Source: Pseudonocardia sp. T1-2H (GTDB lineage Bacteria; Actinomycetota; Actinomycetes; Mycobacteriales; Pseudonocardiaceae). Taken from it: DNA of 64,000 nucleotides. Under the pieces are notes generated by a model, which saw only the letters and a list, made by a program, of their open reading frames with translations, did no database searches and was not told the DNA's origin. The DNA lies in NCBI RefSeq assembly GCF_038039215.1, contig NZ_JBBPCL010000001.1, positions 5,456,001-5,520,000 on the forward strand. Direction: 5' to 3'. Within the stretch, counting starts at the first letter, position 1; each line of letters begins with the position of its first letter. The position numbers and the translations under genes were made by a program. Below are positions 10,265 to 35,484 of the stretch, in pieces.

Positions 10265-10278
10265 TTCGAACCCTTCTC

Positions 10279-11391: not shown

Positions 11392-11419
11392 TTCAGTCAC
11401 CTTTCGTCGCAAGAGGGGC

Positions 11420-12643: not shown

Positions 12644-12694
12644 CCTCTCGACATCCTCGGCGCGGGCATCCTCGAGGGACGCCCCAACTCCTAT

Positions 12695-12708
12695 CGAACA
12701 ATCGTTAA
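12695..12708. promoter_or_regulatory. Operator copy 1 (CGAACAATCGTTAA)
   Basis: A degenerate copy of the five-fold palindrome TNAACGATCGTTNA. It lies in the divergent gap between the acyl-CoA dehydrogenase operon and the TetR gene at 12762, the expected place for an autoregulating repressor. Confidence 0.65.
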
Positions 12709-12749
12709 GTTAACACCGGTGGGCGACTGGTCCAAGGGCCTTCCGGCCC

Positions 12750-14528: not shown

Positions 14529-14571
14529 TCGGGAGGGTTCATCGCACTCTCCCGATCACCGTGTCACTGAA

Positions 14572-14585
14572 TGTACGATCGTTCA
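14572..14585. promoter_or_regulatory. Operator copy 2 (TGTACGATCGTTCA)
   Basis: Palindrome of the TNAACGATCGTTNA family, 37 nt upstream of the thiolase GTG, where it could block the promoter. Confidence 0.75.
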
Positions 14586-14621
14586 GTTGGCGTTGTTCCG
14601 AGACGCAGGGGAGACCTTCCG

Positions 14622-19701: not shown

Positions 19702-19873
19702 TACTGAGCCCTCCCTACGGACGTCGGTGTCGCGAGGGTGGAGAAATGCCACCTCGCTGTGGCGGAAGGTGTGGGTCCGGTCGGATACTTCGCCGGCAAT
19801 ACGTGGTCAATACGCATGCCGAATAGGCCCGCGGCGGAAATCGTACGACTCCGCAGGCAATGGAGAGATCAAC

Positions 19874-19887
19874 TTAACGATCGTTCA
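19874..19887. promoter_or_regulatory. Operator copy 3 (TTAACGATCGTTCA)
   Basis: Consensus copy of the TNAACGATCGTTNA palindrome in the divergent gap between the transporter operon and its binding proteins. Confidence 0.8.
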
Positions 19888-19991
19888 TAAAGTAGCGTTC
19901 GATGCGCTTCCGGTCAACGACCGTTTCACGTCGAGACGCTCGGGAGGCCCGGAGCTGCGCCTTCTGAGATGATCAAGGCGACCCGGGAGCT

Positions 19992-20008
19992 TGCTCCAGA
20001 TTGGAGCA
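19992..20008. promoter_or_regulatory. Inverted repeat TGCTCCA-GAT-TGGAGCA
   Basis: A perfect 7-bp inverted repeat with a 3-nt spacer, unlike the island operator, ~150 nt upstream of the first binding-protein gene. It could be a second operator or a small hairpin. Confidence 0.4.
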
Positions 20009-20154
20009 TGATCCAGCTGGTGTAAAGAATTCACACTTGTAAGCCTGTTCGAAGCATGCACAGAATGACGCCCACGTCGCATCACGATGCATCCGCGTCA
20101 CGCTCGCGATCCGCCACCCGCAATGTCGCGGAACCGGAAGGTGGACCCAGGAAA

Positions 20155-21737
20155 ATGTCCGTCCGTCACATCCGATCAGTCTCCACGGCCGTCCTGTCCG
20201 GACTCCTGGCCGCCACGCTCGTCGTGGCCTGCTCCCCCTCGCACCCACGGGCGGAGGTGGCACCGGGGGCTCCGCGGAGGTCGTCGCGAACTCCGATCTC
20301 GACCCCGAGGCCACCATCCGCTACGCGGACGCCGTCGGGCCCAGCCGGTTCGACCCGCACCGGTCGACGAACGGACAGGACATCCGCTTCCTGGCGCCGG
20401 TCTACGACCGGCTGATCCACCTCGACACCGCCGGCGATCCCGTTCCCGGCCTCGCGACCGCGTGGGAATGGCAGGACGACGGGCTCGCCCTGAAGCTCGC
20501 CATCCGCGAAGGCGTCCGCTTCCACGACGGCACACCCTTCGACGCGTCGTCGGTCAAGGCCAACATCGAACGGGCCAAGACCGTCGAGGGCTCCTCGGTC
20601 AAGTCGGACCTCGCCTCCATCGAGACGGTCGAGGTGCCCGACGCCAGGACCGTCGTGCTGAAGCTGAACCAGCGCAACAGCGCCCTGCTCGGGCTGCTCT
20701 CCCACCGCGCCGGCTGCATGGTCAGCCCGGCCGCATTCGCCAATCCGGACCTGGACCTCAAGCCGGTCGGCACCGGCATGTACAAGGTGAGCAGCTACCG
20801 CCCCGGTGACGTCATCCAGTACGTGCGCAACGACGACTACTGGGACTCCGGCGTCGTCGGCGTCCGCAACCTCGAGCTGCGGATCCTGCCCGACGAGGTC
20901 ACCCGGATGAACGCCATGCGCACCGGCGAGGTCGACGTCGCGCTTCTGTCCGGCCGGCTCGTCCCCGAGGCCTCCGGGCTCCCGGGCGTCACCGTGCACC
21001 GCAGCACGACCCTGACCTACCTGGTGCTGTACCTGAACCGGGCGCGCGCCGAGTTCGGCAACCCCAAGGTGCGCCAGGCGCTCAACTACGCCGTGGACCG
21101 CAAGGCGATCGCCGAGGGCATCTACTTCGGCGCGGCACAGCCGACCGTCCAGCCCTTCCCGCCGAACTACTACGCCTACAACCCGGCCTTCCCCGGCGAC
21201 TACTACCCGCACGACCCGGCCAAGGCGAAGCAGCTACTCGCCGAGGCGGGGCTGCCGAACGGGTTCGAGTTCGAGATGCTCGTGACCGCGCTGTCGACCT
21301 ACACCCAGGCGGGCGAGGCGGTGCAGAACATGCTGGCCGAGGTCGGCGTCAAGGCCAACATCCGCAACGTCGAGGCCGCCCAGACCGCGGACGTCTACTA
21401 CGGCCAGCAGCAGGGAGACGCCCTGGTCTCGCAGTGGGGAGGGCGTCCGGACCCGTCGATGACGATCGGTCTGCAGTTCACCTCGACCGGCTTCTCCAAC
21501 CCGGGCCGGCAGACCACGCCACGCCTGGAGGAGCTGCAGAACGAGGCGCTGGGCAGCCTCGACCCGGCGGTGCGCTCCGAGCGCATCCACGACGCCGTCG
21601 GCGAGCTCGTCGAGCAGGCGTTCCAGGTGCCGATCGTGATGGACGAGTCCGTGATCGCCACCGGCCAGAAGATCGCCGGCTTCGAGACCCTGGTGACGGG
21701 GCAGATCAACTTCCAGAAGCTGGGCGTCAGGAAGTGA
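20155..21737 (+). CDS. ABC transporter substrate-binding lipoprotein 1 (SBP_bac_5), apparent frameshift
   Basis: A family-5 solute-binding protein of ~525 residues. The signal peptide from ATG 20155 ends in the lipobox LVVAC, and the mature domain carries GVRFHDGTPFDASSVKANIERA, QALNYAVDRKAIAEGIYF and the PYDP-like HDPAKAKQLLAEAGLPNG. Signal and domain are in different frames. One missing C in the C-run 20234-20238 right after the lipobox Cys would restore ACSPLAPTGGGTGGSAEVV. It pairs with the divergent dppBCDF-like operon. Confidence 0.85.
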
Positions 21738-21763
21738 GGCGACGGCTCCTGCCGCTCGCCCTC

Positions 21764-21826
21764 ACGTTCGAGCCGGGGCTTGCGGACCGGCCGGAGTTCC
21801 GTGGCGTCGCCAAGGCCGCTGCCTCC
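21764..21826 (+). pseudogene. Vestigial C-terminal fragment of a third binding-protein copy
   Basis: The frame at 21764 reads TFEPGLADRPEFRGVAKAA, matching the C-terminus of binding protein 2 (TYSPALYDRPEFRGVEKAA, ~23366-23425). It lies between the two binding-protein genes with no upstream coding sequence in frame. This looks like a scar of tandem duplication and deletion. Confidence 0.6.
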
Positions 21827-21885
21827 CTGACCTCCCTGCCCGGGCAGCTCGGCGTTCCCGGCATCTCCACCACGAGAGGAGCGCG

Positions 21886-23435
21886 ATGAGGCGGGTCATG
21901 ACCGGAGCCGCGGTGCTACTGCTGGGGCTCGTCGCCGCGTGTTCCCCATCTCCGGCGGAGGCTCGCAGGTCGCGGCGGCGAGCGGGCCGGCTGATCCGCA
22001 GGCGATCTTCCGATGGGCGCACGTCGTCGGGCTGAGCCGGTTCGACCCGCACAAGGCGACGTCGAGCTACGACAACACCTACCTGTTCCTCACCTACGAC
22101 CGGCTGGTCCACACCGACAACGACCTCAGGCCCGTCGCCGGCCTCGCCACGAGGTGGGAGTTCTCGCCGGACGGCAAGGCGCTGGACCTGCAGCTGCGCG
22201 AGGGCGTCACCTTCCACGACGGCACGCCGTTCGATCCCGCGGCCGTGAAGGCCAACATCGAGCGGGCCAAGACCGTCGAGGGATCGTCCGTGCGCAACGA
22301 GCTCGCGACGGTGCAGTCCGTGGAGGTGACCGGCCCGAACAGCGTGCGGCTGGTGCTGAGCGCGCCCACGGCGTCGCTGCCGCTGGTCCTCTCGGACCGG
22401 GCGGGCTCCATGATCAGCCCGGCCGCGTTCGACAACCCGGACCTGGACCAGAAGCCGGTCGGTGCGGGGATGTTCACGGTGGCGGGCTACCAGCCGCAGG
22501 CGAAGATCGAGTACCGCGCCGCGCCGAACTACTGGGACCCCGACTCCGTCAAGGTCGCCGGGATCGACATGTTCATCTACACCGACCCGGCGACCAGGTT
22601 GAACGCGCTGCGGACCGGGGCGGTCGACGGCACGCCCATCTCGCCGGACCAGCTGCCGGAAGCCGAGGCCGCGGGCCTGCGGATAGAGCGCGGCCGCACC
22701 AACAACTTCTACTTCTTCCACCCCAACCGGGCCCGTTCGGAGTTCGGTGACGTGCGGGTGCGCCGCGCGCTGTCCCACGCGATCAACCGCAAGGCGCTCG
22801 TCGACTCGCTGATGCGCGGGTACGGCGAGGTGACCACCCAGCCGGTGCCGTCCTGGAGCTTCGCCTACAACAAGGACCTGCCGGCGGAGACCTACCCGTA
22901 CGACCCGGCGAAGGCCGAGGCGCTGCTGGCGGAGGCCGGGCTGCCGAACGGCTTCACCTTCGAGGCGCTGGTGCCGGTCAACCCGGACTCCCAGCGGCAC
23001 GCCGAGGCGATCCAGGCGGACCTCAAGGCCGTCGGCGTCACCATGACGATCCGGTCGATGGAGGGCCAGCAGCTCACCGACGTGTTCTTCGCGCGCAAGG
23101 AGGGTGACCTGCTGATCGGCACCGGCGGCGGCCGCGCGGACCCGGCGCAGACCACCGGGCTGCGCTACCTGCCGCAGGGCTTCAACAACCCGTCCGGCAT
23201 CAGCACGCCGACCGTCGAGAGGTTCCAGCAGGAGGCGCAGAGCACGACGGACCCGGCGAAGCGCGCCGAGGCCTTCCACAGCCTGATGAAAGAGGTCATG
23301 GACCAGGAGCTCGACGGCGTCCTGTACTTCCTGGCGTCGCCGATCGCCCTGTCCGACAAAGTGATCACCTACAGCCCGGCGCTCTACGACCGCCCGGAGT
23401 TCCGCGGCGTGGAGAAGGCCGCCGAGGGCGCCTGA
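21886..23435 (+). CDS. ABC transporter substrate-binding lipoprotein 2 (SBP_bac_5), apparent frameshift
   Basis: A paralogue of the preceding protein, sharing GVTFHDGTPFDPAAVKANIE, RALSHAINRKALVDSLM and YDPAKAEALLAEAGLPNG. Start ATG 21886 follows GAGAGGAG. The lipobox is LVAAC. The signal frame breaks directly after it, and one extra C in the run 21944-21947 would give ACSPISGGGSQVAAAS and continuous reading to 23435. The break is at the same place as in its paralogue. Likely a second specificity for the same transporter. Confidence 0.85.
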
Positions 23436-24064: not shown

Positions 24065-25110
24065 CTACCCGAGGCCCGCGGCCTTCAATGCCTGGACTGC
24101 GGACTCGCCGAGGCGCGGACGGGACTGCTGCGCCTCGGCGAGGTAGCCGTCGTCCGCCATGACGCCCGCGAGGTACCGCGCCCGGACCCCCGCGAGGATG
24201 CAGGCGGAACGCCAGCGGTTGAACGCGATCCAGTACGGCAGGCCGGTGACGTCCCGTCCGGTCAGCCGCGTGTAATGGGCGACGAGCTCGTCGCGGCTCG
24301 GGAAGCCCGGCACCGAGGTGGGGCCGGGCTCGACGCCCTCGGCGACCTCGTCGCCGGGCTCGTGCCAGGCAGCGACCAGGTAGGACAGGTCCGCCATCGG
24401 GTCGCCCAGGGTGGAGCTTCCCAGTCGAAGACCGCCCGGACCGTGCCGTCCGGCCCGAAGGCCATGTTGCCCGGCCGGAAGTCCCCGTGGACGACGCCGC
24501 GGGTCTGTTCCGGGATGTGCGCGGCGAGGACGTCGTGGATCTCCTCGAGCTGTCCGAGGTCGGGGTCGTCCGCGGCCAGCGAGGCGTGCACCTGGCGGTT
24601 CCAGCGGCGCAGCTGCCGCTGCACGTACCCCTCCTGCGGCGCCGTCGCGCCGAGCCCCACGGCGTCCGGGTTGACCGCGTGCAACGCCGCCAGCACCTCG
24701 ACGACGTGCTCCCCGGCCCGCTTCCGGGCGGCCGGCTCCAACTCCTCCGCCGCGGCGCGGTCCGTCAGCACCCGGCCGTCGACGAAGCCCATGACGTAGA
24801 AGCCGGCGCCGGTCACGGACTCGTCGTCGCAGAAGGCCAGCGGCGGCGCGACCGGGACGGCCGTCGGGGCCATCGCCGAGAGGAACCGCCACTCCCGGCC
24901 CATGTCGTGCGCGGTGCTCAGCACCCCGCCGAGCGGCGGGCGGCGCAGCGCGTAGTGCGTCCCCTCGGCGTCCGTGACGCGGTAGGTCAGGTTGGAGCGG
25001 CCGCCCGCGACGAGCCCGAACCGCACGGGCGCGACCAGCCCGGGGACGTTGGCGGCCAGCCACTCCTCGACCGGTCCCGTGTGCAGGCCCGCGAGCTCAG
25101 CGACCGACAT
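24065..25110 (-). CDS. APH-fold kinase (LvaA/ACAD10-11 kinase-domain-like), apparent frameshift
   Basis: A ~348-aa aminoglycoside-phosphotransferase-fold kinase. GGRSNLTYRV resembles the nucleotide loop, GVVHGDFRPGNM carries the catalytic Asp, and VFDWE the metal-binding Asp. The last ~115 residues (STLGDPMADLSYLVAAW onward) are in another frame; the break is at GAGCTTCCC on the plus strand, 24414-24423. Relatives phosphorylate hydroxyacyl-CoAs rather than antibiotics (LvaA; kinase domain of ACAD10/11). It is last in the lactonase-ACS-ECH-kinase operon, which supports that reading. Confidence 0.85.
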
Positions 25111-25864
25111 AGTTCGGCTCGCGCTTCTCCAGGAACGACTTCACGCCCTCCCGGTGGTCCTCGGTCCGGAACAGCTCCCCGAGCCGCGTGCTCACCCAGC
25201 GCCCCAGCTCCGACCAATCCGGGTCGAGCGCCTCGCGCAGCCCGGACTTCAGCGCCGCGACGGCCAGCGGCGGGTTCGCCGCGATCTTCCGGGCCAGCTG
25301 CAGCGCGGCCGGCATGAGCTGCTCGTCGTCCACGACCCGGCCGACCAGCCCGATCCGCTCCGCCCGCTCGGCGTCGATCACCTCACCGGTGAACAGCAGC
25401 TCCGCCGCCCGCTCCCGCCCGACGAGCTGCGCGAGCCGAGCGATCCCCGCGACGTCGCTGCACAGCCCGCGCTTCACGAACAACTCGCCGAACTTCGCCC
25501 GGCGCGCGGCCACCCGGAGGTCCGCCATCAGCGCCATCTCCATCCCCCACCCGACAGCGGGGCCGTTGACGGCGGCGATCACCGGGATGTTCGTCTGCAG
25601 CAACGCGCCCGCGGCCGGGGTGAGCCGGGGCGCGGGCCGCGGCGCCGAGTTCTCCTCGCCGCCGTTCATCAGCTCGCGGACGTCGTCCCCGGAGCAGAAC
25701 GAGCGGCCCTCCCCGGTGATCACCAGGACCCGGGCGGTCGAGGTCTGCACGAGCTCGGCGAGCTCGTCGTAGGTCTTGCGGCGCAGGGCGTTGTGCACCT
25801 GCGGCCGCGCGATGGTCACGATCCCGACGTGCCCGTCGAGCTCGTACCGGACGTCCTCAGGCAC
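25097..25864 (-). CDS. Enoyl-CoA hydratase family protein
   Basis: A 255-aa crotonase-fold protein with SFCSGDDVREL and AAVNGPAVGWGMEMALMADLR as the CoA-binding and oxyanion segments, VKRGLCSDVAGIARLAQLVG, and a typical end SFLEKREPNYVGR. GTG 25864 overlaps the CoA-ligase stop by 8 nt, and its own 3' end overlaps the kinase start by 14 nt, so all three are translationally linked. Confidence 0.88.
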   Translation of the reverse strand: MPEDVRYELDGHVGIVTIARPQVHNALRRKTYDELAELVQTSTARVLVITGEGRSFCSGDDVRELMNGGEENSAPRPAPRLTPAAGALLQTNIPVIAAVNGPAVGWGMEMALMADLRVAARRAKFGELFVKRGLCSDVAGIARLAQLVGRERAAELLFTGEVIDAERAERIGLVGRVVDDEQLMPAALQLARKIAANPPLAVAALKSGLREALDPDWSELGRWVSTRLGELFRTEDHREGVKSFLEKREPNYVGR

Positions 25865-27580
25865 CCTCGGCCTCCCCTGCCACGGCGGCCCGCAGCTCTC
25901 GTTTGAGCACCTTCCCGCTCGGTGTGCGCGGCAGCGGCTGCTCCCTGAACACGACGTGCTCGGGCACCTTGAACTCCGCCAGCCGCTCGCGGACGTGCTG
26001 TTGCAGCTCCTCGGCGGTCACCGGGATCCCCGCCCGCACGTTCACGACGGCGACGGCCTGCTCGCCGAGCCGGGCGTGCGGCAGCCCGACGATCGCGACG
26101 TCCGCCACCGCCGGGTGCTCGAACAGTGCGCCCTCGACCTCGGCGCAGTAGATGTTCTCGCCGCCGCGGATGACCACGTCCTTCATCCGGTCGACGACGT
26201 ACACCCAGCCGTCGCGCGTCAGGCCCAGGTCGCCGGTGTGGAACCAGCCGTCGGTGAACGCCGCCGCGGTGCCCTCCGGGTTGTTCCAGTAGCCCCGCAC
26301 CACGTTCGGCCCGCGGAACCACAGCTCCCCGACGCCGCCCGGCTCCGCGTCCTCGCCGGTCGCGGGGTCGACCACGCGCACGTCCGCACCGGGCGCACAG
26401 CGGCCGACGCTGTCCGGGTGGGTCACGTAGTCCTGCCCGGAGTTCGAGACGACGGCGGACGTCGTCTCGGTGAGCCCGTAGCCGTTGGCCGGGGCGACGA
26501 GCGAGGTGAAGGTGTCGTCGATCGTCCCGATCAGGTCCGGCGGGATCGGCGAACCGCCCATGCTGATCGCGGCGAGTGTGCCGAAACCGTCCGGGTCCGC
26601 GATCGCGTCCTCGACGAGCTGCCGCATCACCGTCGGCACCCCGGAGACGCCCGTCAGCGCCTCGCGGCGGACCAGCTCCCGGGCCTCGGCGCGGTCCCAC
26701 CTGTACTGCGTGACGAGCTTCCCCCGGTCAGCGGCGTGTACGTCAGGCTCGTGATCCCCGCGATGTGGAACAGGGGGAACGTGCACAGCGCGCCGGCCTG
26801 GGGAGCATCGGGATCCGGCTCGGGTGGCTCGCCACCGTTGGCGATCGCCAGGCCGACCGTGGCGCCGAGGAGGGTGTTGAGGATGTTCGTGCAGTGGTTG
26901 CGGTGGGTGCCGATCGCCCCCTTGGGCCGGCCGGTGGTGCCGGAGGTGTAGAGGATCGTGGCGTCGTCGTCCGGCGCGATCTCGACGTCCGGCAGGGGCG
27001 CGTCGAGGTCGAGCGAGGCCAGCACGTCGGACCAGGCGCGGACGCCGGAGACCGGGTCGCCGCCGCGGACCTCGATCAGGGGCGGGAGCTCCGCGAGGTA
27101 CGGGGCCAGCAGCGCGGTGCGCTCGGCGTCCGCGACCACGAGCTTCGCCTCGCAGTCACCCAGGGCGTAGCGCAGCTCCGCCGCCGTCCACCAGGCGTTG
27201 AGCGGGACGAACACGATCCCGGAGACCTGCGCGGCGTAGAACCACGGCATCCACTCGGGGAAGTTCCGCATCGTGACGGCGAGCCGGTCGCCCTGGCGGA
27301 GGCCGTACTCGTCGTGCAGAAGCGTGGCGAGGCCCGCGACGATCCGCGCGTGCTCGGCGTAGGTGACCCGCTCGTGCTCGAAGACGGTGAAGACCCGGTC
27401 GTCCCAGGTCGCGCTGAGCTCGAACAGCTCGCGCAGGGTGTGCGGGCCCCGTTCGTAGACCCGCCACGGGACGCCGCGCACGGTCGTGTCGGTGAGGGCG
27501 AAGGGCGCGCCGAGAGCGGTGAACCGGGCGGTGAGCTCGGAGCGGACGCTGCCACCGAAGTCCGTCGAGACCGTGGTCAT
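25857..27580 (-). CDS. Class I adenylate-forming acyl-CoA synthetase, apparent frameshift
   Basis: A ~574-aa ANL-family ligase that would activate a carboxylic acid as its CoA thioester. The AMP-binding P-loop is ILYTSGTTGRPKGAI, the A5 motif GYGLTETTS, the hinge region DRMKDVVIRGGENIY, and the catalytic Lys in PRTPSGKVLKREL. The two halves are in different frames; the break is at 26714-26725 (GAGCTTCCCCC, plus strand) and one extra G in the coding strand restores TPLTGGKLVTQ. Ten nt below the lactonase gene. Confidence 0.88.
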
Positions 27581-27590
27581 GCCGCCCTCC

Positions 27591-28535
27591 TCAGGCCGAG
27601 AACGCGAGGTCGAGCCCGGGGTACGGCCACTGGAGCGTGTAGAGCTTCCCCAGGCCGGACGAGGTGATGAACGCCGTGCGGGAGTCCCCGCCTGCGAAGC
27701 AGATGTTGGTGACGTACGGGTCCGGCTCGGGCACCGGGATCTGCCGGAGCAGGGTGCCGTCGTCCGCGATGATGCTGACCGCCCCGGTGACGAGCGTGGC
27801 GACGCAGACGTTGCCCGCGCCGTCGACGGCCAGGGAGTCCAGCAGCTGGTAGCCCGCGAAGCCGTGCAGCAGCATCGCGCCGCCCGGGCCGCGCGGGGGT
27901 TCGCCGGGCGGCGAGACGCGGCCGGGCCCGTCGACGTTCCAGGCCCAGACCCGGCCGGGACCGGTCTCGGCGACGTAGACACAGCTGCCGTCCGGGGACA
28001 GCCCGACGCCGTTGGGCGTCATCAGCGGGTGCACGACCTCGGTGATCGACGAGCCGTCGGGCAGCGCGTAGCAGAGCCTCCCGATGTCCATGTCCCGCCC
28101 ACGGTTCTTGCCGAGGTCGGTGAACCAGAAGCCGCCGCCTGCATCGAAGACGATGTCGTTGGGGCCGTTCAGCGGGAGCCCGTCGACCTCGGTGTAGAGG
28201 TCGGTGACCTGCCCATCCAGGGTGACCCGCTGGATCCGGCCGCCGATGTAGTCCGCGGGCTGGTGGCCCGGCGCGGTGATCCCGTCCCGGTCGTGCCACT
28301 CGAAGCCGCCGTTGTTGCAGACGTAGAACGCGCCGTCCGGGCCGATCGCGGCGCCGTTCGGGCCGCCGCCCAGCTCCGCGATCACCTCGGTCTTGCCGTC
28401 CGGGTGGACCCGGGTGAGCGTCTGCCGCTTGATCTCCACGAGGACGACCGAGCCGTCCCGCATCGCGATCGGGCCCTCCGGGAACTCCAGTCCCGAGGCG
28501 ACCTCGCGGAGCTCGAGCTGATCAACGCTGACCAT
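27591..28535 (-). CDS. SMP-30/gluconolactonase-type lactonase
   Basis: A 314-aa six-bladed beta-propeller of the SMP-30/gluconolactonase/LRE family, which hydrolyse lactones with one divalent metal. EFPEGPIAM gives the first metal-ligand Glu, GLPLNGPNDIVFD the Asn/Asp region, and LMTPNGVGLSPDG with ETGPGRVWAW later blades. No signal peptide, so cytoplasmic. First gene of the operon with the CoA ligase, hydratase and kinase. Operator copy 4 lies 18 nt before its ATG. Confidence 0.87.
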   Translation of the reverse strand: MVSVDQLELREVASGLEFPEGPIAMRDGSVVLVEIKRQTLTRVHPDGKTEVIAELGGGPNGAAIGPDGAFYVCNNGGFEWHDRDGITAPGHQPADYIGGRIQRVTLDGQVTDLYTEVDGLPLNGPNDIVFDAGGGFWFTDLGKNRGRDMDIGRLCYALPDGSSITEVVHPLMTPNGVGLSPDGSCVYVAETGPGRVWAWNVDGPGRVSPPGEPPRGPGGAMLLHGFAGYQLLDSLAVDGAGNVCVATLVTGAVSIIADDGTLLRQIPVPEPDPYVTNICFAGGDSRTAFITSSGLGKLYTLQWPYPGLDLAFSA

Positions 28536-28552
28536 CGACGTCCTTCCAGTGC

Positions 28553-28566
28553 TGAACGATCGTTAA
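28553..28566. promoter_or_regulatory. Operator copy 4 (TGAACGATCGTTAA)
   Basis: Consensus palindrome between the lactonase ATG (28535) and the stop of the next CoA-ligase gene (28577), placed to control the lactonase operon. Confidence 0.8.
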
Positions 28567-28576
28567 GTACCCGACG

Positions 28577-30130
28577 CTAGGAGCGGGCGGTGGCCTTGTC
28601 AACGCCCGTCACGAGCGCGCGGAGCTCGCGCTTGAGCACCTTGCCGACGGTGTTGCGCGGCAGCTCCGGCACCAGCAGGACCTTCCGCGGGCGCTTGTAG
28701 CCGGCGAGGCGGTCCCGGCAGAACTCGCGGATGTCTTCGGCCGTCGGCTCCCGGCCTTCGTGTGGCTCGATGACGGCGACGACGATCTCGCCCCACACCT
28801 CGTCCGGCTCGCCGACGACCGCCGCCGCGGCCACCGCCGGATGCTGGTGCAGGACCTCCTCGACCTCGCGGGAGTACACGTTCTCCCCGCCCGTGAGGAT
28901 CATGTCCTTCTTCCGGTCGACGATCGAGAAGTAGCCCTCGGCGTCCCGTTTGGCCAGGTCACCGCTGTGGAACCAGCCGCCGCGGAACGCCTCGGCGGTG
29001 GCCTCGGGGCGGTTCCAGTAGCCCGCGCAGACCTGGTCCCCGCGGATCACGAGCTCGCCGACCTCGTCCGGGCCGGTGTCCTCGTCGTGCTCGTCCACCA
29101 CGCGCACCGCGGAGAGGAACATCGGCTTCCCGACCGACGTCAGCAGCTCGGTCCGGCCCTCCGCCGCGGCGACGTGGTCCGCCGAGCCGTGCACCATGAC
29201 GTTGCCCGCGAGTTCGGTCATGCCGAACCCGGTCTGGAACCTCGCGTTCGGGAACGCGGCCATCGCCTCCCGCAGCACGGCCGCGGGCATCGGCGCCCAG
29301 CCGTAGCCGATCCGGGTGATCGACGACGTGTCGTACTCCGCGAACGAGGGGTGCCGCAGCAGCATCGCGAGCATCGTCGGCGCGACGGACGTGCTGGTCG
29401 CGCGGGTCTCCTGGACCGCGGCGAGGAAGCCCTCGGGGTCGTAGCGGCGCAGCACCACCACGGCGTCCCCGTGCACGTGGGCGACCAGCACGCCGTAGCC
29501 GGCGATGTGACAGAGCGGCCAGGGCTGCAGGGAGACGCCCGGCTCGTCGTCGTGCTCCCAGCTGACGGCCGAGTTCAGCACCGCCGCGGTGACGTTGCGG
29601 TGGGTCAGGACCGCGCCCTTGGCCCGCCCGGTGGTGCCGGAGGTGTAGATCAGCCAGGCCGGGGCCGTCTCCTCGGGGGGCTCCGGCTGCCCGGGCTCCG
29701 GCCCGTCGAGCAGGACCCGGAAGGGCAGGGCCCCTTCGGGTGCGCCGTCGATCACGATCAGCGTGGTGATCGAGGGGACGGTCGCCATCGCCGTCCGCGC
29801 CGTCTCCAGGTACTTCATCTCGGTGATCAGCACGGTCGGCGTGGAGTCGCTCAGGTTGAGCTCCACCTCGCGCGGGGTGAGCCGGTAGTTGACGAACACC
29901 AGCGCCATCCCGGCGAGCGGGACGCCGTAGTAGGCCAGCACGTACTCGGGGTTGTTCTCGGTCAGCATCGCCACCCGGTCCCCGGAGGCCGCGTGGTACG
30001 CCAGCCCGCGGGCAAGGCGCCGGACCTGGTCGTCGAGCTGCGCGTAGGTCCAGCTCTCCCCCTCGAACCGGAGCGCGATCGCGTCGGGGACACGGGCGGC
30101 GCCGAACTCCAGGACGTCACTGATCCGCAC
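28577..30130 (-). CDS. Class I acyl-CoA synthetase
   Basis: A 517-aa ANL-family ligase with AWLIYTSGTTGRAKGAVLTH (P-loop), GFGMTELAG, GDLAKRDAEGYFSIVDRKKD, MILTGGENVYSREVEE and the catalytic Lys in PRNTVGKVLKREL. GTG 30130 follows GGAGAGGAG. It is the last gene of the minus-strand group that starts with the ACAD at 33814. The second CoA ligase of the island, intact in one frame. Confidence 0.92.
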   Translation of the reverse strand: MRISDVLEFGAARVPDAIALRFEGESWTYAQLDDQVRRLARGLAYHAASGDRVAMLTENNPEYVLAYYGVPLAGMALVFVNYRLTPREVELNLSDSTPTVLITEMKYLETARTAMATVPSITTLIVIDGAPEGALPFRVLLDGPEPGQPEPPEETAPAWLIYTSGTTGRAKGAVLTHRNVTAAVLNSAVSWEHDDEPGVSLQPWPLCHIAGYGVLVAHVHGDAVVVLRRYDPEGFLAAVQETRATSTSVAPTMLAMLLRHPSFAEYDTSSITRIGYGWAPMPAAVLREAMAAFPNARFQTGFGMTELAGNVMVHGSADHVAAAEGRTELLTSVGKPMFLSAVRVVDEHDEDTGPDEVGELVIRGDQVCAGYWNRPEATAEAFRGGWFHSGDLAKRDAEGYFSIVDRKKDMILTGGENVYSREVEEVLHQHPAVAAAAVVGEPDEVWGEIVVAVIEPHEGREPTAEDIREFCRDRLAGYKRPRKVLLVPELPRNTVGKVLKRELRALVTGVDKATARS

Positions 30131-30166
30131 GGAAGCTCTCCTCTCCGCCGACTCCCTCGTCGGCGA

Positions 30167-30186
30167 CCCGGGTCTTCGGATCCGGG
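30167..30186 (-). terminator. Hairpin CCCGGGTC-TTCG-GATCCGGG in the kinase/ligase gap
   Basis: 8-bp stem (one mismatch) with a TTCG tetraloop just after the kinase stop codon; a second small stem lies at ~30147-30164. Possible attenuator or RNA-stabilising hairpin inside the operon. Confidence 0.4.
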
Positions 30187-30189
30187 CGG

Positions 30190-31581
30190 TCAGCCCGGGT
30201 GGGTCAGGTACTTCGGGTTCGCCACGGCGAGCCGGTCGGTGATCGCGGTGCGGACGGCGGCGAGCAGGTCCGGGTCGTCCGGGGCGAGGACCCCGGAGCG
30301 GATCGCGTCCGCGAGCGCCCGCTGGTCCGCCTGCCCGAACCGGGCCAGCCGCTCGCGGTGCCGGCGCTCCTGGTCCGCGCCGAACGCCAGCTCCCGCTCG
30401 ACGCCGTCGACCACGTTGGCCGCGACCCGCGCGTTGAACCGGAGTCGTCCCTCCGTGCCGGGCATGACGTCCTCGCGGAGGAACATCGCGACCGCCGCGA
30501 GCAGGTCCCGGCCGGCCGGGAGGCCGTGCAGGTCCGAGCGCGGCGCCTCGGCGAGCACCGGCGCCTCCGCCGGGATGCCCAGGGCCAGGAAGAGGTCGTG
30601 CTCCTGCTCGCAGACCCGGCGGCCGATCGCCACGAACTCCACGGACGGCGTCTCCCCGGACAGGTGCCGCTCGGCCATGCTGCGGCAGCCGACGGCCCAG
30701 CGGGCGGTGCCGTAGACCTGCCACCAGCGGACGGCCTCGGGATCCGGCCGCCACCCGGCGACCTCGGCGTACCCGTCGAGCAGATCGTCGACGATGCCGA
30801 AGCCACCCACCGGAGGTGCCGCACCGAAGCGCCAGCACTTCACGCACAGCCAGCCGAGGTCCTCCCGCGGGTCCCCGCGGTGCACGAGCTCCCAGTCCAG
30901 CACGGCCGCGAGGCCCTCGGGCGAGATGATCAGGTTGCCGTTGCGGAAGTCCCCGTGCACGACCGTCTCCGCGACCGGCTCCGGGCGGCGGGGCTCCAGC
31001 CACGCCAGCGCGATCTCGATCGAGGGCAGGGGCTCGCCGAGCGCGTCGTAGGCCTGCCGCAGGTGCTCAACGGGGTCGTAGGTCTCGGCGCCGGGGACGG
31101 TGTCGACCGGCATCGAGTGGATCCGGGCGAGCGTGCGCCCCAGGTCCGCGGCCATGCCCTCGCGGGCGGGCGCGTACTGCGGCTCACGTAGCAGGCGGCG
31201 GGCGATCGTCTCGCCGTCGACGTGCTTCGTGATCAGGTACGGGGCCCCGACGACCGCCGGGTCCACCCCGTGGTCGACCAGGTGGGGTACCGGCACGCCG
31301 GCGCGCTCGGCCGCCGCGATGGCCGCGGCCTCCCGGGCCATGCCCTCCGGGCGGCCGGGGCCTGGCGGATCCCGCCGGAGCACCAGCCGCCGCGGCGCGC
31401 CGGTGGCCGGTACCGCCTCGAAGGCCCAGGTCTCCCGGCTCGCACCGCCGGTGAGCCGGCGCAGGTTCGCGACGGACACCTCGCCGTCGAGCACCGTGCG
31501 CAGACGCCGGGCCAGCAGCTCGGCCAGGACCGCCGGATCACCGCCGCCCGCGCGTTCGTGGACCGTCGCCGATGCGGTCAT
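30190..31581 (-). CDS. APH-fold kinase fused to a C-terminal DUF6285-type domain
   Basis: A 463-aa protein. Residues ~20-330 are an APH-fold kinase: LTGGASRETWAFEAV, VVHGDFRNGNLIISPEG with the catalytic Asp, VLDWELVHRGDPREDLGWL. The last ~110 residues (DLHGLPAGRDLLAAVAMFLR, then EDVMPGTEGRLRFNARVAAN) match the DUF6285 tail seen on many actinobacterial kinases of this group. In P. putida LvaA needs a small partner, LvaB; I infer the tail is its fused counterpart. Upstream is a lone ACAD, the same pairing as in ACAD11. Confidence 0.85.
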   Translation of the reverse strand: MTASATVHERAGGGDPAVLAELLARRLRTVLDGEVSVANLRRLTGGASRETWAFEAVPATGAPRRLVLRRDPPGPGRPEGMAREAAAIAAAERAGVPVPHLVDHGVDPAVVGAPYLITKHVDGETIARRLLREPQYAPAREGMAADLGRTLARIHSMPVDTVPGAETYDPVEHLRQAYDALGEPLPSIEIALAWLEPRRPEPVAETVVHGDFRNGNLIISPEGLAAVLDWELVHRGDPREDLGWLCVKCWRFGAAPPVGGFGIVDDLLDGYAEVAGWRPDPEAVRWWQVYGTARWAVGCRSMAERHLSGETPSVEFVAIGRRVCEQEHDLFLALGIPAEAPVLAEAPRSDLHGLPAGRDLLAAVAMFLREDVMPGTEGRLRFNARVAANVVDGVERELAFGADQERRHRERLARFGQADQRALADAIRSGVLAPDDPDLLAAVRTAITDRLAVANPKYLTHPG

Positions 31582-31612
31582 GACACCCTCCCGCCGCCCG
31601 CAGGCGCGACGG

Positions 31613-32269
31613 TCAGGAGTCGCGCGCGCCCACCATGTCCAGCGCCAGCCGCTGGTACCGCTCGACCATCTCCGGTCGCCCGACCGGGCCCTTGTCCGAG
31701 AACCAGGCGGCCACGCCGGTGCACATCACGACGATCGCCCGGGCGGCCTCGTCCGGCAGCGGCGTGCGGAAGACGCCCCGCTCGACGCCCTCGCGGACCA
31801 CGGTGTCGAAGAACCGTTGCTGCGCATGCCGCTTGGCCAGGTGCGGGGTGCGGACCGGCTCCTCCAGCGCACGGAGCTCGCTCGTCCCGAGCAGGGTTCC
31901 GCGCTGGTCCTCCAGGTGGAACAGCACCTGCACCTCGACCAGGGCGCGCAGACGGTCCGCCGGGTCGTCGCCCGCCGCACCCAGCGCCGCCGAGGTGCGG
32001 GCCAGCAGCGCCTCGATCCCGCGCTCCATGATCGTCGCCAGGACGGCCTGCTTCGACGGGAAGTGGTGGTACAGCGCGGCCGGGCTCAGGCCCGCGCGCA
32101 GCGCGATGTCCCGCACCGAGGTGCCGTGGTAGCCGTGCGCGGCCATCACCTCGATCGACGCCTCGATGATCGCCGCATCGCCGGGAGGGGCGTTCGCCGC
32201 CCGGCCGACGTGCCTGCGGCCGCGCGGAGCCACCGGGCCGGCCGGCTCCGATCTTGCGGGACCCGCCAC
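31613..32269 (-). CDS. TetR/AcrR regulator
   Basis: A 218-aa TetR-family protein with the helix-turn-helix at YHGTSVRDIALRAGLSPAAL and a FPSKQAVLATIM helix after it. GTG 32269 is chosen because GAGGGAGGT lies 6-7 nt upstream; longer starts run into the cyclase remnant. It sits between that remnant and the kinase gene, in the operon under operator copy 5. It could co-regulate the palindromes together with the regulator at 12762. Confidence 0.85.
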   Translation of the reverse strand: MAGPARSEPAGPVAPRGRRHVGRAANAPPGDAAIIEASIEVMAAHGYHGTSVRDIALRAGLSPAALYHHFPSKQAVLATIMERGIEALLARTSAALGAAGDDPADRLRALVEVQVLFHLEDQRGTLLGTSELRALEEPVRTPHLAKRHAQQRFFDTVVREGVERGVFRTPLPDEAARAIVVMCTGVAAWFSDKGPVGRPEMVERYQRLALDMVGARDS

Positions 32270-32356
32270 GCGGCCACCTCCCTCTGCTTGCATCCTCCGT
32301 GGCCACGGAGAACGGCAAGGGTACCCAGGCCGCCCCGCGCCTCCCCGCACGGCGCA

Positions 32357-32561
32357 CCTGATGGCCGGCGGATTGATCGGCGAGCCCAGGACGGCGGAAC
32401 TGGATGGGCGGCGCGGTGAGGAAGAAGTCGTACCGGCCGCCGCCCGCCGCGCCGCGGTCCGGGGTGAGCAGGTTCGTGGTGCCTCGCTCGTCCTTCACCC
32501 CGTCGACGTCCCAGCGGCCCCGGTTGGACAGCCGCGTCCCGATCTCCCTGAAGTCCCGCAT
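32357..32561 (-). pseudogene. Internally deleted cyclase-family (kynurenine-formamidase-like) hydrolase
   Basis: The frame from ATG 32561 reads MRDFREIGTRLSNRGRWD and DERGTTNLLTPDR, the N-terminus of actinobacterial cyclase-family proteins (~300 aa). It jumps directly to YDFFLTAPPIQFR and, after a one-base shift, GSPINPPAIR, the family C-terminus. The middle ~220 residues, including the metal-binding HxGTHxD region, are gone. The ATG touches the ACAD stop (TGATG), so an intact copy once sat in the operon. Confidence 0.72.
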
Positions 32562-33814
32562 CAGCGCTTGCGCGGGCCGGCGAAGCCGAAAAGGTAGCCG
32601 GCCACCTTCCGCATCTGGATCTCCTCGGAGCCCTCGGTGATCCGGTAGCGGCGGTGGTGGCGGTAGATGTGCTCGAACGGCGTATGCCGGGAGTAGCCCA
32701 GCCCGCCGTGCACCTGCATCGCCCGGTCCGCGGCCTCGCAGACGAAGCGGTTGGCCCGGTAGTTGCACATCGAGACCTTGTCGCTGATCTCCATGTGCGG
32801 CACCCGGTCGAGCTCCCAGGCGGTCTTACGAACCAGCCCGCGCAGCATCTCCGCCTCGGTGTGCAGCTCCACCAGCGGGAACTGGATCGCCTGCCGCGTC
32901 GCCAGCGGAGCCCCGAACGTCACCCGGTTCCGGGCGTACTCCACGGCCCGGTCGATGCAGTACTGCCCGGCGCCGACCCCGGAGGCGGCCTGCCGGATGC
33001 GGTTCTCGTGCACGAAGGTCTGGGCGACGGCGAGCCCCATGCCCTCCTCGCCGAAGATCGCCGAGTTCGGCACCCGCACGTCGGAGATCGTGACCTCGGC
33101 ATGGTCGGTGGGCATGTTCAGCGTCCACCAGTGGAAGTCCACCGAGAAGCCGGGGCTGTCGGTCGGGACGAAGAACGCGGTGATGCCCCGCGCCGCCCCG
33201 TCGTCACCGCTGGTGCGGGCGAACACAACGTCGTGCGTCGCCGAGTGCATCCCGGAGTTCCAGCGCTTGGCGCCGTTGAGGATCCAGTCGTCGCCGTCGC
33301 GGACCGCCCGGGTCTCCATCCACGTCGCGTCCGACCCGTGGTCCGGCTCGCTCAGCCCGAAGCCGATCCGTGCCTTCCCGGTCAGCATCGGCTCCAGGTA
33401 CTCCTCCTTCTGCTCCTGCGTAGCGAAGGCCAGCAGCATGTGCGCAAAGGGGAAGTTCCCGACGACCGACGACTCGTTCTGCAGGTCGTTGAACAACCCC
33501 AGGCCCTTGTGCGCCAGATGCTCGCGGATCACCGCCATGTCGAAGTTCGTGCCGTCCTGCCCGCCGACCTCCTTGGGCAGCGCGTACCGGAGCCAGCCTG
33601 CGGCGTCGGCGCGGCGGCGCATCTCCCGCAGCAGCTCCTCCCACTCCGGCCGGGGCGTGCCGCCGGCCTCGAAGTCGGTCCGCGCCCACTCCCGGCGGTG
33701 GTCGAAGAAGCGCTCGTTGTCGTCCTGCGCCTGCAGCGGCAGGATCTCGCGCTCGATGAACGCGTCGAGGTCCGCGAGCTTCTGCGACAGCTCCACGGGG
33801 AGTTCGAAATCCAC
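32561..33814 (-). CDS. Acyl-CoA dehydrogenase family protein (stand-alone, ACAD11-like context)
   Basis: A 417-aa ACAD. GFGLSEPDHGSDATWMETRA and LNGAKRWNSGMHSATHDVVF are the FAD/substrate segments, and GGLGYSRHTPFEHIYRHHRR leads into YRITEGSEEIQ. It begins an operon ending in a kinase-DUF6285 protein and a CoA ligase. In ACAD10/11 and Lva pathways such a dehydrogenase acts on 4-phosphoacyl-CoA; assignment here is from context. Operator copy 5 lies 10 nt before its ATG. Confidence 0.88.
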   Translation of the reverse strand: MDFELPVELSQKLADLDAFIEREILPLQAQDDNERFFDHRREWARTDFEAGGTPRPEWEELLREMRRRADAAGWLRYALPKEVGGQDGTNFDMAVIREHLAHKGLGLFNDLQNESSVVGNFPFAHMLLAFATQEQKEEYLEPMLTGKARIGFGLSEPDHGSDATWMETRAVRDGDDWILNGAKRWNSGMHSATHDVVFARTSGDDGAARGITAFFVPTDSPGFSVDFHWWTLNMPTDHAEVTISDVRVPNSAIFGEEGMGLAVAQTFVHENRIRQAASGVGAGQYCIDRAVEYARNRVTFGAPLATRQAIQFPLVELHTEAEMLRGLVRKTAWELDRVPHMEISDKVSMCNYRANRFVCEAADRAMQVHGGLGYSRHTPFEHIYRHHRRYRITEGSEEIQMRKVAGYLFGFAGPRKR

Positions 33815-33823
33815 CAGGCCTCC

Positions 33824-33837
33824 TAAACGATCGTTCA
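33824..33837. promoter_or_regulatory. Operator copy 5 (TAAACGATCGTTCA)
   Basis: Consensus palindrome in the narrow divergent gap between the ACAD operon (minus, start 33814) and the two crotonase genes (plus), so one site can govern both. Confidence 0.8.
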
Positions 33838-33885
33838 GCTAGGATGGCATCGTCACCGGCCGCGGGGGAAGGGTTGAGGTCGAAG

Positions 33886-34654
33886 ATGCGCGAGATCCGC
33901 TACGAGGTACGCGACCACGTCGCGACGCTGACGATCGACCGGCCCGAGAAACGCGGCGCCATGACCTACGCGATGCTCGACGAGTTCGCCGCCTCCGTGG
34001 CCCGGGCCGGCGACGATCCGGACGTGGTCGTCCTGCTAGTCACCGGGGTACCGGGCAGCTTCTGCGCCGGGATCGACCTCGCGGACCTGGCCGGCCGGGA
34101 TCCGTCGAACCGGGGCCGTGGCGACGGCGACGGCGTCCCCCTCCTCATGGGCTGCCCGAAGCCGGTGGTCTGCGCCGTCGACGGGATGGCCGTCGGGATG
34201 GGCGCGGAGTTCGCGACCCAGGCGGACGTGCGGTTGGTCTCGTCCCGGGCGCGGTTCCGGTGGAACTTCGTGCATCGTGGGCTGGTGTCGGACACGGGTG
34301 CCGGAACGTGGCTGCTGCCCCGCCAGATCGGCGTCGCGGCGGCTTCGAGGCTGCTCTACACCGGCGACGACCTCGATGCGGACGAGGCGCTCTCGCTCGG
34401 CTTCGCGGCGAGTGTCCACGAGCCGGACGAGCTTCCCGGCCGCGGCGGCCGCGTTCGCCGCAAGGATCGCCACCGCATCGCCGTTCGCGCTGGTCAGGAC
34501 CAAACGGCTACTGCTCGACGGCGCCGGCCTGGACCTCGACCGGCACGTCCGGGCGACCCGGATCACCATGGCCGAATGCTTCGCCTCGGCGGATCATGCC
34601 GAGGGGATCGCGTCGTTCCTGGAGAAGCGGCCGGCCCGGTTCACTGGCCGTTGA
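33886..34654 (+). CDS. Enoyl-CoA hydratase family protein, apparent frameshift
   Basis: A ~255-aa crotonase-fold protein. SFCAGIDLADLAG and CAVDGMAVGMGAEFATQADV form the oxyanion hole, followed by VHRGLVSDTGAGTWLLPRQIG. After residue ~184 the reading shifts by one base at GAGCTTCCCGG (34430-34440). Reading GAGCTCCCGG gives DELPAAAAAF and continues to EKRPARFTGR. ATG 33886 fits the family N-terminus and has GAGG upstream; ATG 33844 is in frame but abuts the operator. Confidence 0.82.
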
Positions 34655-34677
34655 TCATTCGAATCGGAGAGGACACC

Positions 34678-35484
34678 ATGACCGAGCAGCGCGTGCTGAT
34701 CGAGATCACCGACGGCGTCGCGGACGTCCGGCTCAACCGGGCGGAGAAGCGCAACGCGCTGGACCCGGCCATGTTCGCCGGGATCGTCGAGGCCGGGGAG
34801 ACGCTGAAGAAGGATCCGTCGGTGCGGGTCGTCGTGCTGTCCGGCGAGGGCCCGGACTTCTGCGCCGGACTGGACTTCGGCTCCTTCCGGGCGATGCGGG
34901 ACGGCGAGCGGCTCTCCGCGAGCGCGGCCGTCCCGCCCGGTAACGGGCCGGCGAAGGCGACCGGGCAGCGCGCCGCGTACGTCTGGGCCGAGCTCGAGGT
35001 CCCGGTGATCGCGGCCGTCACGGGCAACGCGCTCGGCGGCGGGCTGCAGATCGCGCTCGGCGCGGACATCCGGATCGTGTCGCCGGACGCGACGCTCTCG
35101 GTGTTCGAGGTGGCGTGGGGGCTGATCCCGGACATGACGGGCTCGCAGCTGCTCCCCGAGCTGGTGGGCCGGGACGTCGCGAAGGAGCTGACGCTCACCG
35201 CGCGGAAGGTGGGCGGGGAGGAGGCCGTCGCGATCGGGCTGGCCACGAAGCTGGACCCGGAGCCCCGCAAGGCCGCCCTCGCGCTCGCCCGCTCCATCGC
35301 CGAACGGAACCCGCACGCCGTCCGGGCCGCGAAGCGCCTGCTGGACATGGCGGGCCGGGTGGACCTGGACACCGGCTTCGCCGCGGAGCAGACGGAGATC
35401 GGCGCGCTGATCGGGAGCCCGAACCAGGTGGAGGCCGTGACGGCGGCGTTCGAGAAGCGGGCGCCGGTCTTCAAGGACGTCTGA
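34678..35484 (+). CDS. Enoyl-CoA hydratase family protein
   Basis: A 268-aa crotonase-fold enzyme: DFCAGLDFGSFRA, AAVTGNALGGGLQIALGADIR, FEVAWGLIPDMTGSQLLPELVG. The Asp in GLIPDMTG matches Delta3,5-Delta2,4-dienoyl-CoA isomerase-like members better than classical hydratases, so it may shift double bonds. GGAGAGGA precedes ATG 34678. It follows the previous crotonase by 23 nt. Confidence 0.9.
   Translation: MTEQRVLIEITDGVADVRLNRAEKRNALDPAMFAGIVEAGETLKKDPSVRVVVLSGEGPDFCAGLDFGSFRAMRDGERLSASAAVPPGNGPAKATGQRAAYVWAELEVPVIAAVTGNALGGGLQIALGADIRIVSPDATLSVFEVAWGLIPDMTGSQLLPELVGRDVAKELTLTARKVGGEEAVAIGLATKLDPEPRKAALALARSIAERNPHAVRAAKRLLDMAGRVDLDTGFAAEQTEIGALIGSPNQVEAVTAAFEKRAPVFKDV

What the first reader, a model, noticed from the sequence alone, without database searches (positions are those of the whole stretch)
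24065..33814. Candidate lactone / 4-hydroxy-acid pathway through phosphorylated acyl-CoAs
One operon reads lactonase (SMP-30), CoA ligase, enoyl-CoA hydratase, APH-fold kinase; its neighbour reads ACAD, deleted cyclase, TetR, kinase-DUF6285, CoA ligase. Both carry the shared operator. In P. putida levulinate catabolism LvaAB phosphorylates 4-hydroxyvaleryl-CoA and the ACAD LvaC processes the product; human ACAD10/11 fuse kinase and ACAD. I infer: lactone opened to a hydroxy acid, activated with CoA, phosphorylated, converted by the ACAD to an enoyl-CoA, then hydratases, SDR and thiolase. A lactonase-led, two-kinase version in an actinobacterium would be new to my knowledge.
Basis: inference. 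Interest (0 to 1): 0.85.

Follow-up and report, generated by a model that had tools for sequence, protein, structure and literature searches.

The report
Lactone pathway with two acyl-CoA kinases
A soil actinobacterium carries a co-regulated gene cluster that looks built to open lactones and burn the resulting hydroxy acids by tagging them with phosphate, but the oxidising enzyme at its head is not the kind that is known to remove that phosphate.

Summary
In a Pseudonocardia-like genome, 24065-33814 holds two head-to-tail operons. Each starts at a palindrome, CTNAACGATCGTTNAG, whose only two perfect copies in the 7.0-Mb genome are these. One kinase is an LvaA-LvaB fusion: 36% identical to LvaA, with a 'DUF6285' tail that is LvaB. 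The other is ACAD11-like. The SMP-30 protein is about 55% identical to solved beta-propeller lactonases. So the lactone / hydroxyacyl-CoA / kinase reading is well founded.

The ACAD step is not. This ACAD has none of four LvaC/ACAD11 residues. ACADs with all four follow the ACAD11-like kinase in three same-genus relatives and Amycolatopsis acidicola; here the two found are unlinked.

Yet among 60 genomes (own included) this ACAD and a KIN2-type kinase are both present in 18 and both absent in 41; the one kinase-only genome has a four-residue ACAD beside it. Either an ordinary dehydrogenase works beside the kinase, or this is a second class of phosphoacyl-CoA ACAD.

KIN1, LIG1 and a hydratase carry one-base frame slips here (probably sequencing errors); a cyclase gene is mostly deleted.

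The parts
33823..33838 (.). operator CTNAACGATCGTTNAG at the head of operon B
   Evidence: one of only two perfect copies in the 7.0-Mb genome; conserved at the same place in relatives
32561..33814 (-). ACADc: acyl-CoA dehydrogenase of a distinct subfamily (Glu base; RIRQAAS helix; HHRRY(R/K)ITEG)
32351..32560 (-). remnant of a PF04199 'cyclase' gene, 714 bp missing relative to G026
31613..32350 (-). TetR2 regulator (TetR_C_24), probable ligand of the operator
   Evidence: operator present in 16 of 16 loci with TetR2 at least 55% identical, 6 of 24 others
30190..31581 (-). KIN2: LvaA-type kinase fused to an LvaB (DUF6285) domain
28577..30130 (-). LIG2: acyl-CoA ligase, 34.5% identical to LvaE
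28552..28567 (.). operator CTNAACGATCGTTNAG at the head of operon A
   Evidence: perfect copy; conserved
27591..28535 (-). SMP-30-type beta-propeller lactonase
   Evidence: PF08450; PDB 8djf/7ris E 6e-101, about 55% identity
25857..27580 (-). LIG1: acyl-CoA ligase, one frame slip near 26723
   Evidence: intact G026 orthologue closest to CasG, far below its cut-off
25097..25864 (-). ECHc: enoyl-CoA hydratase/isomerase family
24065..25110 (-). KIN1: ACAD11/3dxp-type kinase, one frame slip near 24417
33844..34680 (+). ECHe: enoyl-CoA hydratase family, one frame slip near 34434; divergent from operon B
34678..35484 (+). ECHd: enoyl-CoA hydratase family
7792..12709 (-). linked operon: SDR, two enoyl-CoA hydratases, two ACADs; operator-like core (1 mismatch in 10 bases) at 12697-12706
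14571..15764 (+). operator-like site (2 mismatches in the 16-base site) and acetyl-CoA C-acetyltransferase (thiolase)
15835..19888 (-). oligopeptide-type ABC transporter: two ATPases, two permeases; one-mismatch operator at 19873-19888
20634..23435 (+). two SBP_bac_5 solute-binding proteins

Best explanation
A TetR-controlled catabolic regulon for a lactone or hydroxy acid. The beta-propeller lactonase opens a lactone; LIG1/LIG2 make the hydroxyacyl-CoA; the LvaA-LvaB fusion kinase (KIN2) and/or the ACAD11-type kinase (KIN1) phosphorylate its hydroxyl; an LvaC-type ACAD removes phosphate to give an enoyl-CoA; hydratases, SDR, thiolase and further ACADs finish by beta-oxidation. In some relatives the LvaC-type ACAD is encoded in the cluster directly after KIN1. 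In this genome no such copy is in the cluster, and the step must be done by one of two unlinked LvaC-type ACADs or by ACADc. Shown by sequence: families, gene order, operator, LvaA-LvaB fusion, signature residues. Inferred: every reaction, the substrate, and the order of steps.
For: KIN2 to LvaA 36% over 327 aa, E 6.5e-49, and its tail to LvaB 32% over 116 columns; an LvaB profile built without LvaB or KIN2 scores both at 77 bits. In the kinase tree KIN2 and LvaA share a side of 37 of 64 tips without KIN1, local support 0.81. KIN1 to ACAD11 kinase E 1.9e-25 and 3dxp E 3e-40. SMP-30 to beta-propeller lactonase E 6e-101. Four-residue (RHRD) ACADs follow KIN1 in L072, L073, L074 and L107, and follow KIN2-SMP30 in L099, L101, L102. 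The LvaC/ACAD11 chemistry is published (PMC12440821, PMC11342911; passages read). Operator specific to the two operons and conserved.
Against: The only ACAD in the two operons is not LvaC-type. The two LvaC-type ACADs of this genome lie 0.4 and 1.6 Mb away with no operator at two mismatches or fewer. SMP-30 is only loosely coupled to KIN2. ACADc-kinase pairs occur with no lactonase seen in the held stretch in Sulfitobacter, Mycolicibacterium and, with a kinase of uncertain clade, haloarchaea. Two Pseudonocardia relatives with the full cluster (L070, L071) and the nearest relative (L069) also lack a clustered RHRD ACAD. KIN1 and LIG1 are interrupted in the window's own sequence. The support that separates KIN2+LvaA from KIN1 is moderate (0.81). 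No substrate is known.
Confidence: 0.55

Rival explanations
1. ACADc itself is the phosphoacyl-CoA enzyme: a second, independent class of ACAD that works with LvaAB-type kinases using different pocket residues (Asn and Gln where MCAD has Thr255 and Val259, recalled numbering; Arg/His-rich strand before the Glu base).
For: In 60 genomes (own included) ACADc and a KIN2-type kinase are both present in 18, both absent in 41, ACADc alone in 0; the one kinase-only genome has an LvaC-type ACAD beside the kinase instead (Fisher 2e-14, and 7e-5 counted by genus). On one contig and within 1.7 kb in 15 of 18. KIN2-type kinase within 120 bp of ACADc in 20 of 27 named loci with both. ACADc beside a kinase also in Sulfitobacter and haloarchaea. 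RIRQAAS and the Glu base invariant in 84 of 84.
Against: 0 of 4 LvaC/ACAD11 residues. The same motif is present in the 46 of 80 ACADc loci with no kinase in the held flank, so it is not tied to a kinase in cis. ACADc and an RHRD ACAD sit together in L072-L074, L099, L101, L102 and L107, which suggests different steps.
Confidence: 0.22
2. ACADc is an ordinary alpha,beta-dehydrogenase and the cluster degrades a branched, cyclic or terpenoid acid. Kinases and lactonase act on a late hydroxylated intermediate, not on a starting lactone.
For: ACADc is nearest to SCAD/MCAD in the PDB (186 bits; ACAD11 115 bits) with a Glu base. The regulon includes an adjacent pair of ACADs, one without the middle domain (I recall such pairs from steroid catabolism), and LIG1 is nearest CasG, though far below its cut-off (434 of 750 bits). 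SMP-30 is not always present.
Against: Does not by itself explain why ACADc and KIN2 are almost perfectly co-inherited. Overlaps with the best explanation: only the entry point differs.
Confidence: 0.3
3. The cluster is decaying in this strain: frame slips in KIN1, LIG1 and ECHe and loss of the cyclase make it non-functional here.
For: Three one-base slips in genes and a 714-bp deletion relative to a 94%-identical relative.
Against: All three slips share one short sequence context and the remaining genes and operators are intact, which fits sequencing error better. But counts of that context do not prove a systematic miscall.
Confidence: 0.12
4. The APH proteins are true antibiotic or other small-molecule kinases and their position is incidental.
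For: Same Pfam family PF01636; weak KIN2 matches to NCBIfam APH(3'), LxmK and thiamine-kinase models, all far below cut-off.
Against: Best solved matches are ACAD11 and 3dxp, not aminoglycoside kinases; LvaB domain; neighbouring ACADs across phyla.
Confidence: 0.02

Closest known systems
lva operon (levulinate / 4-hydroxyvalerate catabolism, lvaABCDE of Pseudomonas)
   Same: LvaA-type kinase with LvaB, acyl-CoA ligase, an ACAD, and an SDR (31% to LvaD) in one operator-defined regulon
   Different: LvaA and LvaB fused; the clustered ACAD lacks the LvaC signature; lactonase and a second kinase added; TetR genes instead of the PrpR-like regulator annotated at L088; hydratases and thiolase included
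ACAD10/ACAD11 (animal kinase-ACAD fusions for 4-hydroxyacyl-CoA)
   Same: KIN1 is of the ACAD11 kinase type; in some relatives it is followed by an ACAD with the four ACAD11 residues
   Different: Separate polypeptides; in the window the ACADs with those residues are unlinked
Beta-propeller lactonase of PDB 7ris/8djf (recalled as RPA3624 of Rhodopseudomonas palustris, which hydrolyses gamma-valerolactone; Hall et al. 2023, title seen only in a reference list)
   Same: Nearly full-length, about 55% identity
   Different: Substrate here untested
Sulfitobacter pontiacus plasmid operon (L206)
   Same: ligase, kinase, DUF6285, ACADc, two hydratase-family genes, thiolase, with two adjacent ACADs and a TetR nearby
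   Different: No lactonase or second kinase in the 15-kb stretch seen; TRAP instead of ABC transporter; kinase and DUF6285 are separate genes

Membership tests
LvaA/LvaB 4-hydroxyacyl-CoA kinase | kinase sequence groups with LvaA rather than with aminoglycoside kinases | tested here: met
   KIN2: 36% to LvaA over 327 aa; same side of the tree as LvaA with support 0.81; PDB look-up favours ACAD11/3dxp over aminoglycoside kinases. No true aminoglycoside kinase was in the tree. KIN1 is outside the LvaA side
LvaA/LvaB 4-hydroxyacyl-CoA kinase | LvaB partner | tested here: met
   fused DUF6285 tail aligns to residues 4-117 of the 118-aa annotated LvaB
LvaA/LvaB 4-hydroxyacyl-CoA kinase | APH catalytic motifs HGDxxxxN and DWE | tested here: met
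   HGDFRNGN/LDWE in KIN2, HGDFRPGN/FDWE in KIN1
LvaA/LvaB 4-hydroxyacyl-CoA kinase | phosphorylates 4-hydroxyacyl-CoA | not testable with these tools
   needs enzyme assay
LvaC / ACAD10-11 type ACAD | residues R626, H634, R637, D753 (mouse ACAD11 numbering, PMC12440821; motif placed by me in LvaC) | tested here: not met
   window ACAD reads F, Q, S, E; two unlinked ACADs of the genome read R, H, R, D
SMP-30/gluconolactonase beta-propeller lactonase | near-full-length similarity to a solved lactonase | tested here: met
SMP-30/gluconolactonase beta-propeller lactonase | metal-ligand residues intact | not tested
   ligand positions were not mapped
lva operon as a whole | LvaC-type ACAD inside the cluster | tested here: not met
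   absent in the window; present in L072-L074 and L107
lva operon as a whole | LvaE-type ligase and LvaD-type SDR | tested here: inconclusive
   LIG2 34.5% and LIG1 (G026) 32.6% to LvaE, SDR 31% to LvaD, too general to tell

The most novel reading that the evidence does not exclude
ACADc is a second, unrecognised class of phosphoacyl-CoA-processing acyl-CoA dehydrogenase, partnered with LvaAB-type kinases in Actinomycetota and Alphaproteobacteria and with a related kinase in haloarchaea. It stands in for LvaC, with its own invariant signature (RIRQAAS helix, HHRRY(R/K)ITEG before the base). In Pseudonocardia it is combined with a lactonase and an ACAD11-type kinase.
Probability: 0.22. Interest if true: 0.75.

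Novelty: new variant of a known kind. Interest (0 to 1): 0.58.

Why it matters
Phosphorylated acyl-CoA chemistry was tied to enzymes only in 2017 (bacteria) and 2024-2025 (mammals). This cluster ties it to lactone opening and to actinobacteria, shows that DUF6285 is the LvaB family, and points to a widely conserved kinase-ACAD pair whose ACAD does not fit the known mechanism, a directly testable puzzle.

Tried and rejected
Aminoglycoside-kinase reading: rejected on PDB look-ups and gene neighbours, though weak NCBIfam matches exist. 'KIN1 is 24065-25063': rejected, that frame has no domain. My interim view that the genome has one LvaC-type ACAD was wrong: with Pseudomonas LvaC found a second (L212). 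Of 24 places found the 20 with loci were checked for the signature, the 4 weakest were not; of 48 ACAD places only 30 were given loci. Depletion of the slip context as proof of systematic miscalling: not seen. Haloarchaeal 'hypothetical' between ACADc and kinase as LvaB: not significant (E 0.003-0.02); the haloarchaeal kinases fall on the KIN1 side of the 0.81 split on a long branch, and own_L008 did not pass the profile and is not in the tree. Paper searches: (open-licence PMC only; one search listed 20 of 29 papers, 12 of 94); none listed was on such a cluster in actinobacteria, and 'DUF6285' is in 0 papers. Rand et al. 2017 and Hall et al. 2023 were not held, so their content is recalled or second-hand. 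Papers seen as passages only: PMC12440821, PMC11342911, PMC12362111; the others as search listings. The search for homologous proteins, structure prediction and fold search were not used.
Full report
What is there. The window lies in a 7.0-Mb genome that is probably a Pseudonocardia: the contig of same-genus relative G031 has the same length, 233,164 bases, as that of named P. terrae (inference). Between 24065 and 33814 two minus-strand operons lie head to tail. Operon B: ACADc, a cyclase remnant, TetR2, KIN2 (APH + DUF6285), LIG2. Operon A: SMP-30 lactonase, LIG1, hydratase ECHc, KIN1 (APH). A divergent pair of hydratase-family genes (ECHe, ECHd) starts at 33844.

Operator. CTNAACGATCGTTNAG occurs perfectly twice in the genome, at the heads of operons A and B. 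One mismatch: before the oligopeptide-type ABC-transporter operon at 19873 in the window (families), and at C1:1156590. Two mismatches: before the thiolase at 14571 and at five other places in the genome. The shorter core AACGATCGTTNAG is found perfectly at three sites in the genome, all in the window. In 40 loci of relatives (L071 and L093 are probably one record) a site with two mismatches or fewer is present in 16 of 16 loci whose TetR2 is at least 55% identical, and in 6 of the other 24 (TetR2 identities). TetR2 is therefore the likely regulator (inference).

Lesions. Against G026 (94% DNA identity over 14.1 kb) the window has one-base frame slips near 24417 (KIN1), 26723 (LIG1) and 34434 (ECHe), all in the same short context, three more one-base differences between genes, and a 714-bp deletion that removes the PF04199 domain of the cyclase. 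KIN1 is one intact frame in the six relatives L069-L074; LIG1 in those six and in L075. Sequencing error is the likelier cause of the slips, but one search does not prove it.

Kinases. A plasmid search found an lva operon with an annotated LvaB (L088). KIN2 matches LvaA at 36% over 327 aa (E 6.5e-49) and its tail matches LvaB at 32% over 116 columns. A profile made from Azoarcus, Thermus and Variovorax DUF6285-type proteins alone scores LvaB and KIN2 equally, 77.1 and 76.8 bits. So DUF6285 is the LvaB family and KIN2 an LvaA-LvaB fusion. In a tree of 64 kinase sequences KIN2 and LvaA share a side of 37 tips without KIN1, local support 0.81; the actinobacterial KIN2 group with Variovorax and Sulfitobacter is itself split from LvaA (33 tips, 0.97). 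KIN1 is 28% identical to LvaA over 191 aa but hits the ACAD11 kinase at 1.9e-25 and 3dxp at 3e-40 in the PDB. Against aminoglycoside kinases: KIN2 reaches one at E 0.39 in the PDB and the NCBIfam APH(3') model at 30 of 205 bits; KIN1 reaches none (the KIN1 frame with the domain was not scanned against NCBIfam).

Lactonase. The SMP-30 protein matches PDB 8djf ('Gluconolactonase') and 7ris ('Beta-propeller lactonase') over residues 9-312, E 6e-101, 166 identical of about 304 aligned. I recall these entries as the R. palustris enzyme that hydrolyses gamma-valerolactone. The paper's title was seen only in the reference list of PMC12362111, which also reports that two other beta-propeller lactonases did not act on gamma-valerolactone; the R. 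palustris paper itself was not held.

The ACAD problem. [quoted passage not shown] I placed them in LvaC by motif. In the alignment they read R, H, R, D in LvaC, Thermus and Azoarcus ACADs and in the own-genome ACAD at 3.88 Mb, but F, Q, S, E in the window ACAD and in 12 orthologues; a thirteenth, broken in G015, shows only Q and S. ACADc is closer to SCAD/MCAD (186 bits) than to ACAD11 (115 bits) in the PDB, whereas the 3.88-Mb ACAD has ACAD11 as its top hit (292 bits). A second R-H-R-D ACAD lies at 5.92 Mb. Neither is within 10 kb of any of the 14 APH places or near an operator at two mismatches or fewer. The 3.88-Mb ACAD has an orthologue at 83-100% in 10 of the 11 other same-genus genomes given; in G018 the best match is the cluster paralogue at 73%. 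The cluster paralogues of G004, G011 and G018 are 72-73% identical to it, so they are a separate gene.

What relatives add. In G004, G011 and G018 (L073, L074, L072) an R-H-R-D ACAD follows KIN1 directly; the same holds in Amycolatopsis acidicola (L107). In three Actinomycetospora loci (L099, L101, L102) the order is ACADc, KIN2, SMP-30, R-H-R-D ACAD. Against it, the full clusters of L069, L070 and L071 have no such ACAD in the fetched stretch. Many of the 80 are cut by contig ends.

ACADc and KIN2 belong together. In the same 60 genomes (own included) a KIN2-type kinase (E up to 1e-40; in several it is matched only over the kinase part, so not fused or incomplete) is in 19 and ACADc (E up to 1e-140) in 18: both 18, kinase only 1, ACADc only 0, neither 41. 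Fisher p is 2e-14, or 7e-5 when each of 23 genera counts once (6, 1, 0, 16), which lessens but does not remove the effect of kinship. In 15 of the 18 the two lie on one contig within 1.7 kb; in G010, G012 and G015 the scored copies are on different contigs (G015 also has a broken ACADc beside KIN2). The exception, G047, has an R-H-R-D ACAD next to KIN2 (L082). Lactonase is looser: in 15 of 60, shared with the kinase in 11. Outside the order, Sulfitobacter pontiacus has ligase, kinase, DUF6285, ACADc, two hydratase-family genes and thiolase in a row, and two haloarchaea have ACADc, a hypothetical gene and a kinase. Other LvaA-type kinases sit by R-H-R-D ACADs (Pseudomonas, Azoarcus, Thermus, Nonomuraea) or by a third type (Variovorax). 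RIRQAAS and the Glu base are in 84 of 84 ACADc sequences and HHRRYRITEG in 83 of 84, with or without a kinase nearby. Asn271 and Gln275 sit where MCAD has Thr255 and Val259 in the acyl pocket (MCAD numbering recalled; alignment to 1ukw), so the pocket may be unusually polar.

Conclusion. The lactone to hydroxyacyl-CoA to phosphoacyl-CoA route is the best reading for this cluster, with the elimination step moved from the clustered ACAD to an LvaC-type ACAD that is clustered in some relatives and unlinked here. What ACADc does beside an LvaAB kinase is the open question; a second phosphoacyl-CoA ACAD class is not excluded. All reactions are inferred.

Noticed in passing
window 24417, 26723, 34434: Three one-base frame slips relative to a 94%-identical relative, all in the same short context; possible sequencing error in this assembly.
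   Followed up: partly
window 15835-23435: Oligopeptide-type ABC transporter and two SBP_bac_5 proteins beside or inside the operator-defined regulon: an importer for an unknown, perhaps bulky, substrate.
   Followed up: partly
G000:C1:1156590 (L203:5591-5606): The other one-mismatch operator lies between a divergent alpha/beta hydrolase (Abhydrolase_3) and an HTH_67 protein: possible extra regulon member.
   Followed up: partly
L205, L207: Haloarchaeal plasmids pair ACADc and an APH-family kinase with acetoacetate decarboxylase and hydantoinase/oxoprolinase genes (and, in L205, an acetone carboxylase gamma subunit), hinting at a ketone-forming pathway.
   Followed up: no
L091:6947-9452: Variovorax LvaA- and LvaB-like genes sit with a third kind of ACAD (A, I, A, E at the four positions).
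   Followed up: no
window 54114-55352: PF13941 MutL-family protein next to an acyl-CoA ligase.
   Followed up: no
L010, L011, L012: Three further KIN1-like kinases of the genome at 4.51, 2.82 and 2.45 Mb have none of the 48 ACAD places within 10 kb; one lies two genes after an SDR (L012:6186-6956).
   Followed up: partly
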